DNA from: Kordiimonas lipolytica
Lineage (GTDB): Bacteria; Pseudomonadota; Alphaproteobacteria; Sphingomonadales; Kordiimonadaceae
DNA: 64,000 nt
Direction: 5' to 3'
Assembly: GCF_001550065.1 (NCBI RefSeq)
Contig: NZ_LRUB01000011.1
Location: forward strand, 124,001 to 188,000
Shown here: in pieces, positions 6,607-54,931 of the stretch
Layout of the letters: every line of letters begins with the position of its first letter
Position numbering within the stretch: the stretch's first letter is position 1
Translations under genes and position numbers: made by a program
The notes under the pieces: generated by a model
Told to the model about the DNA's origin: nothing
Databases searched by the model: none
The model's input: only the letters and a program-made list of their open reading frames with translations

Positions 6607-7401
6607 CTATGTCCCGACCCCGGGCGGCGGGGCAGTACCGAAACTTTGCACCAGTGATCCGGCCACAAGATTCCAGCCGTCCACAAGCACGAAGAAGATC
6701 AGCTTGAAAGGCATGGCGATCATCACCGGTGGCAGCATCATCATGCCCATGGACATAAGGATCGAGGCTACGACCATGTCGATCACGACAAAGGGCACAT
6801 AAAGCAGGAAACCAATCTCAAACGCGCGGCGAAGCTCCGAAATCATGAAGGCCGGTACAAGAATGGTCAGTGAGACTTCCTCTGGTGTGTCAACCGGCTC
6901 GGATGGTGACAGGTTCATGAAAAGTTCCAAATCTTTTTCCCGCACCTGGGACAGCATGAAATTCCTGAGAGGAACGGAGGCGCGGTTGAAGGCTTCCTGT
7001 TCATCGATTTCTTCGTTCACCAGCGGTTGGATTCCCTGGTTCCAGGCGGCTGTCAGGGTAGGGGCCATGACATAGCCTGTCAGGAATAGGGCCAGCGAAA
7101 TCAAGACAATATTGGGGGGTGTTTGCTGCGTACCCATAGCACTTCTTAGAAGCGAGAAGACAATGATCATGCGGGTGAAGCTGGTCATCATGATCAGGAT
7201 GCTTGGCGCCAGGCTCAGCACTGACAGCAAGAGAATCATCTGTACCACGCGACCGCTCAGTGAGCCGGATTCGCCTAAATCAAGGCTCAGAGACTGTGCT
7301 GCTGCAGGTGTTGTCACCATCGCCAGCGCGGCCAGACCCAACGGCAAAAGGAACAGGAAACTGCGGATGATCAGCTTGCGGTGAAACTTAATGGCTTTCA
7401 C
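6607..7401 (-). CDS. fliP: flagellar type III export gate protein FliP
   Basis: Core membrane subunit of the flagellar export gate, which with FliQ and FliR forms the channel for axial proteins. 264 residues with an N-terminal signal sequence (about 13-35), as usual for FliP, then LSVLSLAPSILIMMTSFTRMIIVFSLLR, the highly conserved family block, and a C-terminal membrane part with GMMMLPPVMIAMPFKLIFFVL. GTG start at 7401 with GAGGAAA upstream, overlapping the fliO stop by 14 bases, so translation is coupled. Last gene of the leftward flagellar operon. Confidence 0.96.
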   Translation of the reverse strand: MKAIKFHRKLIIRSFLFLLPLGLAALAMVTTPAAAQSLSLDLGESGSLSGRVVQMILLLSVLSLAPSILIMMTSFTRMIIVFSLLRSAMGTQQTPPNIVLISLALFLTGYVMAPTLTAAWNQGIQPLVNEEIDEQEAFNRASVPLRNFMLSQVREKDLELFMNLSPSEPVDTPEEVSLTILVPAFMISELRRAFEIGFLLYVPFVVIDMVVASILMSMGMMMLPPVMIAMPFKLIFFVLVDGWNLVAGSLVQSFGTAPPPGVGT

Positions 7402-27830: not shown

Positions 27831-27865
27831 AGCCGCCGTTTTCACGCCAAACGGCGGCTTTTTTA
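27831..27865 (+). terminator. terminator after the SPOR lipoprotein gene
   Basis: Perfect ten-base stem AGCCGCCGTT (27831-27840) / AACGGCGGCT (27850-27859), nine-base loop, then TTTTTT. Confidence 0.9.
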
Positions 27866-27869
27866 TGTC

Positions 27870-28175
27870 TTTGGTAGAAAAAAATTGCAATATTTGCATA
27901 AGCAACCTTGACAGCAACCGTCAAATCCTGTCGGATGCTGCTTCCTTCACCGATTTCAGATCGGGATTGATCCATCTGGGGAGGTACGATCAATCTTTTT
28001 GGCGCCCACGGATTAGGCAGCCACTGACGGAGAAGGCCCGGGCACACCTGGGGGTTCGCTCGGATTAGGCGCGGTGTTTCAGCCACATTGTGGTTTGTTC
28101 GCCGCGCCTCTTATTAAGTCACACTGAAAATCAATTTTCTGGGAAGCCGCCTCGTGGAATACGCAGGCGGTTTTT
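27870..28175 (+). ncRNA. candidate structured small RNA between two rightward terminators
   Basis: No credible reading frame lies in this ~300-base span, yet it ends in its own rightward terminator (28144-28175) while the previous gene already terminates at 27865. Several stems can be seen: GATTGATC/GATCAATC around 27966-27995; CCGAT/ATCGG around 27949-27964; and a long arm AGGCGCGG (28067-28074) / CCGCGCCT (28102-28109) closing a symmetric 8x8 internal loop with an inner CCAC/GTGG hairpin. The decamer CGGATTAGGC occurs twice (28009, 28061). It does not match SRP, RNase P or tmRNA landmarks. It could be a diverged 6S-like RNA; identity unknown. Confidence 0.4.
28144..28175 (+). terminator. 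second rightward terminator with no gene before it
   Basis: Stem AGCCGCCT / AGGCGGTT (arms at 28145-28152 and 28165-28172) with a 12-base loop, continuing into TTTTT. In the leftward direction there is no T-run, so it serves a rightward transcript. Confidence 0.7.
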
Positions 28176-28190
28176 CTATGGCAGTCTGCC

Positions 28191-28376
28191 TCAGCGCTGG
28201 AAAAACAGCGGGTCAGGAATACGGGATTGCGGCTGTACGCGCGGGCGAGGGGCCTTTGGCAGTTTCTTGGAAAGAAAACGCCACATCACCGATGCACCGT
28301 CCTGCATCGCGGCCATGCCGAGCCCACCAATCAGAATAAACAGCAGAAGAATAATCAGATGTTCAAAACCAGGCAT
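28191..28376 (-). CDS. 61-residue single-pass membrane protein under double LexA control
   Basis: Begins with ATG 28376 behind a near-ideal ribosome site, GGAGGA, with six bases between. One hydrophobic helix at about residues 6-24 (HLIILLLFILIGGLGMAAM) is followed by a short basic, proline-rich tail (SKKLPKAPRPRVQPQ) that should face the cytoplasm. Its promoter region contains two perfect LexA boxes (28387-28401 and 28430-28444) flanking a sigma-70 type promoter. No homologue recognised. Small SOS-induced membrane peptides such as Caulobacter SidA block division, so a checkpoint or toxin role is a reasonable inference but unproven. Confidence 0.75.
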   Translation of the reverse strand: MPGFEHLIILLLFILIGGLGMAAMQDGASVMWRFLSKKLPKAPRPRVQPQSRIPDPLFFQR

Positions 28377-28386
28377 TGTGTCCTCC

Positions 28387-28401
28387 GTTCTTATTTTGTT
28401 C
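28387..28401. promoter_or_regulatory. LexA box 1, at the start site of the 61-residue gene
   Basis: GTTCTTATTTTGTTC, perfect GTTC-N7-GTTC. It touches the ribosome site of the leftward small gene and overlaps the -10 by one base, so bound LexA would cover the transcription start. Confidence 0.85.
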
Positions 28402-28429
28402 TTTTATGATGACGCGACGCGCACGTCAA
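28401..28429 (-). promoter_or_regulatory. sigma-70-type promoter of the 61-residue gene
   Basis: On the minus strand: -35 TTGACG (28429-28424), 17-base spacer, -10 TAAAAG (28406-28401). The -35 abuts LexA box 2 exactly and the -10 overlaps LexA box 1. The expected leader is under 25 bases. Confidence 0.65.
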
Positions 28430-28444
28430 GAACAAAAATAGAAC
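28430..28444. promoter_or_regulatory. LexA box 2, upstream of the -35
   Basis: GAACAAAAATAGAAC, perfect GAAC-N7-GAAC. The same 15 bases recur at 54911-54925. It could also act on the rightward ppx/gppA gene, whose start is 143 bases away. Confidence 0.85.
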
Positions 28445-28586
28445 AAAAATAAATTACAGGATTGGTTACATCTGAAATTTATTGCGCTGTCGCGCGGCCT
28501 GGTGCTAAACATAAGGCAAGTGAGCAGCACGACTGAAAGACCATAAAACGGTCGGCTGCGACAAAAAAGATAACAAGAGAAAAAGT

Positions 28587-29867
28587 ATGTCGTTAGACCC
28601 ACAGGCCCAAGGGGCCGGGGCAGGGCCAGGCACTCCAGATTCGGGAGGCCAGGCTGAGCACCAACAGAAGAATTCCGGCAGAAAACGCCGCCCCCGCCGC
28701 CGCAAGCGCTGTGCAAAAGGGCAAGACAAGGCGCAGGAGAGAACGCAGCGTTCCGCCGTGCAGCCGTCTGCTCCCGCAAAGCAGCATAACTCAACATCGG
28801 CTAAAAGGCCTGTCCGCCAGCAGTCTGACCGACCGTTGCGCGGTGTTTATAGTGCCATTGATCTTGGCACCAACAATTGTCGGCTGTTGATTGCGCGCCC
28901 AACGCGGGGCGGTTTCCGCGTGATAGACGCCTTTTCCCGTATCGTCCGGCTTGGCGAGGGGGTGTCCTCCAACAACAAACTTTCAGACGAAGCGATGGAC
29001 CGCACGATTGAGGCCCTGAAGGTGTGCGCCGAAAAGATCGCGCGCCGGGGCGTCACCTGCATGCGGCATGTGGCAACGGAAGCCTGCCGCGTGGCTGAAA
29101 ATTCCGATGAATTCATTGCCCGCGTCAAGCGCGAGACCGGCATCAACCTGGATGTAATCTCCGCGGGCGAAGAGGCGCGCCTTGCGGTTATGGGCTGTCA
29201 GTCGCTGATCGCGCCCGGCAATAGGAACGCCCTGGTGTTCGATATCGGCGGCGGATCGACCGAGCTTATCTGGGTGCGGGTGCACCCCGGCCAGCGCACC
29301 GAGATTTCCGGCTGGATGTCCATTCCCTGGGGGGTGGTGAACCTGTCGGAAAGCTTTGGCCGTCCAGGCGAAACCCTGCCGATCGAACATTACGACAAGA
29401 TGGTTAAGCTGGTGGTGGATCACCTGCAGGCGTTTGAAGACGCGCATCAGGTCTCAAGCGTGGTCCGGAAACGCAAGACCCAGTTCCTGGGAACCTCAGG
29501 CACCGTAACGACGCTTGCCAGCCTGCACCTCAACCTGCCGCGCTATATCCGCGAAAAGGTGGACGGCGCCTGGATGAAATCGCAGGATATTCACGGGCTG
29601 TCGCGCCGTGTGGCGACCATGACGCACGATGAACGGGCGGCACAGGTGTGCATCGGCCCGGAAAGGGCTGACCTTGTTGTAGCGGGCTGTGCTATCCTTG
29701 AGGCCATCCTCGGGATGTGGAAAGTGCCAAGCCTGCGTGTTGCCGACCGCGGCATCCGTGAAGGCATTCTGCGCGGCCTGATGCAGATGGAGCAGCCGCC
29801 AAGGCGGGCACGCCCGCTTTATCATGGCGGCGACAGGACACAGAAGAAGGTAGAGAAGAATGGCTAG
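28587..29867 (+). CDS. Ppx/GppA-family phosphatase (exopolyphosphatase / pppGpp phosphatase)
   Basis: 426 residues. A long, basic, disordered N-terminus (about 1-85, rich in Gln, Lys, Arg) precedes the actin-like phosphatase fold: DLGTNNCRLLIA (about 92-103), ATEACRVAEN, DIGGGSTELIW (phosphate-2 loop) and GTSGTVTTLASL. Family members hydrolyse polyphosphate or pppGpp. The frame overlaps the rlmE start by eight bases, so the two are co-translated. The basic extension is a common alphaproteobacterial addition and may bind RNA or polyphosphate. Confidence 0.9.
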   Translation: MSLDPQAQGAGAGPGTPDSGGQAEHQQKNSGRKRRPRRRKRCAKGQDKAQERTQRSAVQPSAPAKQHNSTSAKRPVRQQSDRPLRGVYSAIDLGTNNCRLLIARPTRGGFRVIDAFSRIVRLGEGVSSNNKLSDEAMDRTIEALKVCAEKIARRGVTCMRHVATEACRVAENSDEFIARVKRETGINLDVISAGEEARLAVMGCQSLIAPGNRNALVFDIGGGSTELIWVRVHPGQRTEISGWMSIPWGVVNLSESFGRPGETLPIEHYDKMVKLVVDHLQAFEDAHQVSSVVRKRKTQFLGTSGTVTTLASLHLNLPRYIREKVDGAWMKSQDIHGLSRRVATMTHDERAAQVCIGPERADLVVAGCAILEAILGMWKVPSLRVADRGIREGILRGLMQMEQPPRRARPLYHGGDRTQKKVEKNG

Positions 29868-43621: not shown

Positions 43622-43657
43622 TTGACATCTGTTGTGGAATTAGAACAAAAAAAGAAC
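43622..43657 (+). promoter_or_regulatory. promoter and LexA box of the GFA-family gene
   Basis: TTGACA (43622-43627) is a perfect -35. GAACAAAAAAAGAAC (43643-43657) is a perfect LexA box sitting where the -10 and start site must be, 20 bases before the ATG. Confidence 0.75.
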
Positions 43658-43677: not shown

Positions 43678-44085
43678 ATGAGCCCGAAAACTGATTTGCG
43701 AACCGGCGGTTGCCTGTGCGGCGCTGTGCGCTATGAAATCAACCTGGATGGCAGCGAGACCAACAACTGCCACTGCAGAGACTGCCAGAAGAACTCCGGT
43801 GGGGCCTTTATGCCTTTCACAAGTGTTGACCGGGGCCAGTTCCGCTGGATTTCCGCGCCAACTGGCGAGGGCAAAGCCAGTGAGATTGCGGTTCGCCGCT
43901 TCTGTGCGGACTGCGGCACGCCCATGACGTGGGAAGGGCGGGACTACCCGGACAGGATTTCCATCAGCACCGGCACGCTGGATGACACAAGCGGGATCGA
44001 GATCAGCGTTGAGATTTTCACCCGCAGCCGCTGGCAGGCCATTCCGCCAGTGCCGGGTGCGCGGCAATATGAGGCTGAGGACTAG
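43678..44085 (+). CDS. GFA-family zinc protein (glutathione-dependent formaldehyde-activating / CENP-V fold)
   Basis: 135 residues. The zinc cysteines are complete: GGCLCGAVRYEI (about 11-22), CHCRDCQKNSG (about 32-42) and FCADCGTPMTW (about 79-89). The family name comes from a reported S-hydroxymethylglutathione synthase activity, which is disputed for many members. GAGGAG ribosome site. The unusual point is regulation: a perfect LexA box and TTGACA lie just upstream, making it SOS-inducible by prediction. Its stop overlaps the convergent CorC-like gene by four bases. Confidence 0.88.
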   Translation: MSPKTDLRTGGCLCGAVRYEINLDGSETNNCHCRDCQKNSGGAFMPFTSVDRGQFRWISAPTGEGKASEIAVRRFCADCGTPMTWEGRDYPDRISISTGTLDDTSGIEISVEIFTRSRWQAIPPVPGARQYEAED

Positions 44086-54796: not shown

Positions 54797-54931
54797 CTAG
54801 TGACCGGGTAACTGCGAAAGTGGCCATATTTGGGAACAAAAAGGGTACACATGCAGGCGCGCCCTCGGTCGGCTAGTTGACCGGGTTCTTGCGAAAAACG
54901 ACCTGCGATCGAACAAAAATAGAACATTAAC
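54797..54931 (+). promoter_or_regulatory. tandem pair of LexA-box promoters, 77-bp period
   Basis: Two related units. Each has TGACCGGGT-N3-TGCGAAA, a gap, and then a LexA box: GAACAAAAAGGGTAC (54834-54848) and GAACAAAAATAGAAC (54911-54925). TGACC and GAAC keep identical spacing (33 bases) in both copies. Each is soon followed by an ATG (54851, 54932). The rightward frames are only 9 and 45 codons, so what they once controlled is unclear. Confidence 0.6.

What the first reader, a model, noticed from the sequence alone, without database searches (positions are those of the whole stretch)
28191..28444. A 61-residue membrane protein locked under two LexA boxes
Seen: a promoter (TTGACG-N17-TAAAAG) exactly flanked by two perfect GAAC/GTTC-N7 boxes, one abutting the -35 and the other overlapping the -10 and start, then a GGAGGA ribosome site and a 61-codon gene with one membrane helix and a basic tail. 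Known: alphaproteobacteria use small SOS-induced membrane proteins (for example Caulobacter SidA) to stop division, and double operators mark genes whose leak is harmful. Inference: this may be an undescribed SOS division inhibitor or toxin. No SulA homologue is present nearby.
Basis: partly seen in the sequence, partly recalled or inferred. Interest (0 to 1): 0.85.

Follow-up and report, generated by a model that had tools for sequence, protein, structure and literature searches.

The report
Likely SOS-controlled small membrane protein
A short membrane-protein gene in a Kordiimonas-like bacterium, apparently kept silent by two copies of the DNA-damage switch and so far seen only in a few close relatives, may be this lineage's own brake on cell division after DNA damage, though that function is untested.

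Summary
On the minus strand a 61-codon gene (28376..28191) follows a GGAGGA ribosome site. Its promoter-like element (TTGACG-N17-TAAAAG) lies between two perfect GTTC-N7-GTTC boxes. The motif is enriched (7 found, 1.24 expected) and also precedes uvrA and ssb, so it is very probably the LexA operator here. In a Markov model of the intergenic region, two boxes within 60 bp arose in 3 of 200,000 trials. The frame scores as coding. Three full-length relatives (85-89% identical, all 61 aa; one named Kordiimonas lacus) appear to share contigs with ppx, whose product is 85-88% identical. A chimeric fourth hit is compatible with a conserved upstream box. No further homologue was found, though the searches have limits. 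No significant match was found in Pfam, NCBIfam, PHROGs or PDB sequences. It belongs to a known kind: LexA-controlled small membrane proteins. A SidA-like division inhibitor is my preferred reading (about 0.5); a membrane toxin or an SOS accessory protein is not excluded. Induction, topology and phenotype could not be tested, and no relative's promoter DNA could be fetched.

The parts
28191..28376 (-). 61-codon gene (stop included): predicted single-pass membrane protein, hydrophobic stretch about residues 7-24, basic tail, last ten residues RIPDPLFFQR identical in 4 of 4 full-length members
28381..28386 (-). ribosome-binding site GGAGGA, 4 bases before ATG
28387..28401 (+). LexA box 2 (GTTCTTATTTTGTTC on +), over the expected transcription start and the last base of the -10
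28401..28406 (-). putative -10 TAAAAG (4 of 6 to consensus)
   Evidence: not listed by the stricter scan
28424..28429 (-). putative -35 TTGACG, 17 bp from the -10
28430..28444 (-). LexA box 1 (GTTCTATTTTTGTTC), abutting the -35; its centre is 43 bp from that of box 2
   Evidence: indirect sign of conservation in P0005
28587..29867 (+). divergent neighbour of the Ppx/GppA family, apparently on the same contig as the gene in three relatives (inferred from equal contig lengths)

Best explanation
This is a LexA-repressed gene for a small inner-membrane protein. In undamaged cells LexA dimers sit on both boxes, one just upstream of the -35 and one over the -10 and start, and keep RNA polymerase off. 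DNA damage makes RecA trigger LexA self-cleavage, which frees the promoter. The protein inserts by one N-terminal helix, with the basic tail predicted in the cytoplasm. There I think it most likely acts as a lineage-specific checkpoint effector that delays division by binding a membrane partner of the septal machinery, as SidA does in Caulobacter. Supported by sequence: boxes, promoter-like layout, coding frame, conservation of the frame in close relatives. Inferred: LexA binding, damage induction, topology, and division as the target.
For: Two perfect boxes in the stated layout, far from chance. The same motif precedes uvrA and ssb and equals the Caulobacter SOS box GTTCN7GTTC (PMC12700426 and PMC9578287, passages). 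Codon score: 0 of 394 wrong-frame stretches reach it. Relatives keep length and C-terminus. Damage-induced division inhibitors include small membrane proteins that act on septal synthesis, such as SidA (29 aa) and YneA, and the inhibitor genes named for different bacteria are described as unrelated to sulA (PMC4211646, PMC13396833, passages).
Against: Nothing in the sequence points specifically to division. No significant Pfam, NCBIfam, PHROG or PDB sequence match; SidA, DidA, YneA and SosA sequences were not compared directly. The predicted orientation (N-terminus out, tail in) differs from YneA, whose LysM domain is outside. The -10 is weak and the promoter scan listed nothing. No relative's promoter DNA was seen. 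No induction data.
Confidence: 0.5

Rival explanations
1. It is a small SOS-induced membrane toxin or dormancy peptide in the manner of TisB or DinQ, which disturbs the membrane when damage is severe; the double operator keeps it silent otherwise.
For: Small size, one hydrophobic helix and a basic amphipathic segment (hydrophobic moment 0.52 at residues 27-44). A structured stretch, 27930-28180 on the opposite strand (z -3.43), ends in a hairpin whose T run stops 15 bases from the gene's end, so an antisense RNA over the mRNA's 3' end is conceivable.
Against: At 61 aa it is about twice the length recalled for TisB, and the invariant C-terminus looks more like a docking motif (inference). The structured stretch pairs with leader plus coding region no better than randomised controls (-116.6 against mean -114.4, sd 10.9). 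No Rfam match at gathering score in the window.
Confidence: 0.2
2. It is an SOS accessory protein: a membrane-anchored regulator or adaptor of a protease, envelope process or repair factor that does not stop division.
For: Genes outside repair and division may be LexA-controlled here: a perfect box lies 20 bases before a GFA-domain gene. The invariant, predicted cytoplasmic tail would suit an adaptor.
Against: No partner gene is evident: the gene stands alone between a convergent gene without a Pfam match and the divergent ppx.
Confidence: 0.26
3. The frame is not a gene, and the boxes serve the divergent ppx or are chance.
For: Box 1 is 142 bases from the ppx start; the promoter scan found nothing.
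Against: Three same-length relatives at 85-89% identity, codon statistics, and a ribosome site directly after box 2.
Confidence: 0.04

Closest known systems
SidA of Caulobacter crescentus
   Same: LexA-controlled small inner-membrane protein of an alphaproteobacterium (PMC4211646, passages)
   Different: 29 aa against 61 aa; the two sequences were not compared here; action on FtsW is reported for SidA and untested for this protein
DidA of Caulobacter crescentus
   Same: 71 aa, one predicted membrane helix, damage-induced (PMC4211646, passages)
   Different: DidA is SOS-independent, induced by DriD; this gene has two LexA boxes. Sequences not compared
YneA (Bacillus subtilis) and SosA (Staphylococcus aureus)
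   Same: SOS-induced membrane division inhibitors (passages and abstracts)
   Different: YneA has an extracellular LysM domain; here no domain is found and the tail is predicted cytoplasmic. Sequences not compared
TisB and DinQ of Escherichia coli
   Same: SOS-controlled small membrane peptides (DinQ: abstract; TisB's control is recalled)
   Different: shorter (recalled); DinQ has antisense small RNAs (abstract), none shown here

Membership tests
Alphaproteobacterial LexA regulon | GTTCN7GTTC operator in the promoter | tested here: met
   two perfect boxes; same motif at uvrA and ssb
Alphaproteobacterial LexA regulon | LexA binding and RecA-dependent induction by damage | not testable with these tools
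   needs footprinting or a reporter
Alphaproteobacterial LexA regulon | operator conserved in relatives | tested here: inconclusive
   only through the chimeric protein P0005: its tail, set against the window's upstream DNA, allows 53 of 63 bases and all 8 core bases of box 1; 138 of 100,000 shuffled tails allow the core. No promoter DNA of relatives was obtained
SOS-induced small membrane division inhibitor (functional class: SidA, YneA, SosA) | small protein with a membrane helix | tested here: met
   by prediction only
SOS-induced small membrane division inhibitor (functional class: SidA, YneA, SosA) | blocks septation, through FtsW/FtsI/FtsN where studied | not testable with these tools
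   needs expression and interaction tests
SidA homologue | sequence similarity to SidA | not tested
   SidA's sequence was not fetched or compared
Type I toxin (TisB/DinQ kind) | cis-encoded antisense RNA pairing with the toxin mRNA | tested here: inconclusive
   structured opposite-strand stretch present; no pairing beyond control with leader and coding region; overlap at the 3' end remains possible

The most novel reading that the evidence does not exclude
A previously undescribed SOS checkpoint effector, particular to a Kordiimonas sublineage, that halts division by a route of its own: a single membrane helix presents an invariant cytoplasmic tail (ending RIPDPLFFQR) to a division or envelope partner, under an unusually tight two-operator switch.
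Probability: 0.35. Interest if true: 0.6.

Novelty: new member of a known kind. Interest (0 to 1): 0.45.

Why it matters
Unrelated small proteins serve as SOS division inhibitors in different bacteria (passages). A lineage-restricted candidate with a clear two-box layout would add a case from Kordiimonadales, for which my three literature searches listed no paper on an SOS system, and would help test whether such inhibitors converge on the septal FtsW complex.

Tried and rejected
The genome-contig scan with the 61-aa protein had 166 pattern matches and one confirmed locus (L001, a Desulfobacteraceae MAG). The match covers 23 residues and lies within a 194-codon open frame but in another reading frame, so I rejected it as chance. 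This scan also did not return the Kordiimonas lacus copy or the window's own, although both contain one of its search peptides (MAAMQDGA), so its silence about other species says little. Viral contigs: 7 stretches matched a pattern, none a relative. Plasmids by tblastn: no match. The second protein search, with the alignment of four, found the same five proteins among six candidates at E<=10. Best Pfam hit SsfX3_N (E 0.21) and best NCBIfam hit FliL (E 0.16) were rejected as chance. By eye the layout (hydrophobic helix, glycines, basic amphipathic segment) recalls TatA/TatB; the Pfam scans did not list that family and I tested it no further. Antisense pairing of 27930-28176 with leader plus coding region: not beyond control. 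The perfect box at 54911 has no evident promoter or gene start behind it, and the one at 6913 lies inside a 264-aa open frame. PADLOC was not searched. Literature: searches pairing Kordiimonas with SOS and LexA, with cell division, and with DNA damage listed 0, 1 and 2 papers; I saw only titles and starts of abstracts, and none treats an SOS system there. PMC4161892 was opened for 'two LexA boxes' and its main text held no such phrase.

Full report
The observation. I read the region on both strands. On the minus strand the order is box 1 (28444..28430), TTGACG (28429..28424), 17 bases, TAAAAG (28406..28401), box 2 (28401..28387), GGAGGA (28386..28381), CACA, and ATG at 28376; the frame ends at 28191. 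The box centres are 43 bp apart, about four helical turns, so two LexA dimers could sit on one face of the DNA around the promoter (inference). The window holds 7 perfect GTTC-N7-GTTC sites against 1.24 expected; 0 of 100 shuffles reach 7. In a first-order Markov model of the 210-bp intergenic region, two sites within 60 bp arise in 3 of 200,000 trials. Against the reading: the -10 has 4 of 6 consensus bases, and the stricter scan lists no promoter in 28000-28700.

Is the motif the SOS box of this organism? Of the five other perfect sites, one lies 104 bases before uvrA, one 95 bases before the called start of ssb, and one 20 bases before a GFA-domain gene divergent from uvrA (families). The sites at 6913 and 54911 have no evident promoter role. 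The motif equals the Caulobacter SOS box GTTCN7GTTC (PMC12700426 and PMC9578287, passages). uvrA is among the SOS genes studied in Caulobacter (PMC12700426, passage); that ssb is a common SOS gene is recalled. PMC13384398 (passages) gives an extended consensus, (T/A)TGTTC-N6-TGTTC, which box 1 matches in full and box 2 does not match before its first half-site. In Caulobacter about 97% of SOS promoters carry a single box (PMC12700426, passage). In this window the only other pair lies between uvrA and the divergent GFA gene, 127 bp apart; I read it as one box for each gene, though both could serve uvrA.

Is the gene real? Its codon score (0.33 bits per codon) is below the mean of true-frame stretches (0.45, sd 0.14; 20% of 197 score lower; these genes also trained the score), but none of 394 wrong-frame stretches reaches it. 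A search of about 5.8 billion proteins returned five, one of them the window's own: P0002, P0003 (hypothetical protein, Kordiimonas lacus) and P0004 at 89, 89 and 85% identity, all 61 aa, and a 54-residue oddity, P0005. In the four full-length rows the first seven and the last ten residues are identical. In one search the three best Ppx relatives (88, 87 and 85% identical over the whole query) list the same longest-contig lengths (26151, 1118349, 135020) as the three full-length relatives of the small protein. So the gene very probably sits with ppx there, and is about as conserved as that neighbour. That these are the same contigs is inferred from their lengths. That the window is Kordiimonas-like rests on these hits; its origin was not told.

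How widely is it found? Among the best 120 Ppx hits listed (of 7999 scored), names Kordiimonas aestuarii, marina, aquimaris, pumila and sediminis and four entries as Kordiimonas sp. None of the five small-protein hits is named for these or shares a listed contig length with them, and the four-sequence profile found nothing more at E<=10 among six candidates. The search needs shared five-residue words and a predicted gene, so diverged or unpredicted copies could be missed. Scans of genome contigs, viral contigs and plasmids gave no true relative. The first of these also missed the known copies, so it is weak evidence of absence.

Are the boxes conserved? I could not obtain promoter DNA from relatives. 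One indirect clue: P0005, from a 2022-base contig, has the first 27-28 residues of the gene and then a tail that aligns without gaps to a reading of the window's own upstream DNA (28488..28426). Its residues allow 53 of 63 bases there and all eight core bases of box 1, and its end falls at the TGA inside TTGACG. Of 100,000 shuffled tails, 138 allow the core. This fits a conserved box in another strain whose contig carries a short duplication or a misassembly. It is suggestive, not proof, and says nothing about box 2.

What the protein looks like. The best 19-residue hydropathy mean is 2.45 from residue 6; net charge is -1 over residues 1-24 and +6 over 25-61. By the positive-inside rule the tail is cytoplasmic (inference). 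AlphaFold2 on four rows gives a helix at 4-38 and a loose tail (mean pLDDT 73.5, pTM 0.32); I ran no fold search. Pfam and PHROGs for four members, NCBIfam for the window's protein, and a profile search of PDB sequences gave nothing significant.

Mechanism. LexA control is the best-supported step (I would put it near 0.9). The target is open. SidA, a 29-residue Caulobacter inner-membrane protein, acts through FtsW (PMC4211646, passages). YneA acts on FtsW, and SosA, ChiZ and SidA are modelled on FtsW without high confidence (PMC13396833, passages). yneA, divS, chiZ and sidA are called unrelated to sulA (PMC4211646, passage), so a lineage-private protein would be no surprise. A Caulobacter without lexA is extremely filamentous because of sidA (PMC12700426, passage), which shows why such a gene would need tight repression. 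The analogy sets the prior; nothing in this sequence shows division as the target. A toxin of the TisB/DinQ kind and an accessory SOS protein stay open.

A neighbouring feature. Past the terminator-like hairpin of the convergent gene (27831-27859), 27930-28180 on the plus strand folds better than shuffles (z -3.43, 0 of 200) and ends in a hairpin with five Ts whose run stops 15 bases from the end of the 61-aa gene. The terminator scans did not list that last hairpin. Without it the z-score is -1.53; two inner parts give -2.10 and -2.31 and one gives 0.08. No Rfam family reaches its gathering score in the window, and three hits below E 1 look like chance. Pairing with leader and coding region is no better than control.

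Verdict. It is a new, narrowly distributed member of a known kind, with its function inferred by analogy.

Noticed in passing
window 27930-28180 (+): Structured stretch (z -3.43) ending in a hairpin with five Ts, convergent with the 61-aa gene; possible non-coding RNA, no Rfam match at gathering score. Much of the signal comes from the last hairpin.
   Followed up: partly
window 43643-43657 and 43678-44085 (+): A perfect LexA-type box 20 bases before a GFA-domain (glutathione-dependent formaldehyde-activating family) gene divergent from uvrA: an unexpected possible SOS member.
   Followed up: no
window 54911-54925 (-): A box identical in all 15 bases to box 1, with no evident promoter or gene start, near a KfrA_N-domain gene and a phage-type integrase gene (mobile-looking region).
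   Followed up: partly
protein P0005: A 54-residue predicted protein from a 2022-base contig that joins the first half of this gene to a reading of DNA from upstream of it: a short tandem duplication or a misassembly.
   Followed up: partly
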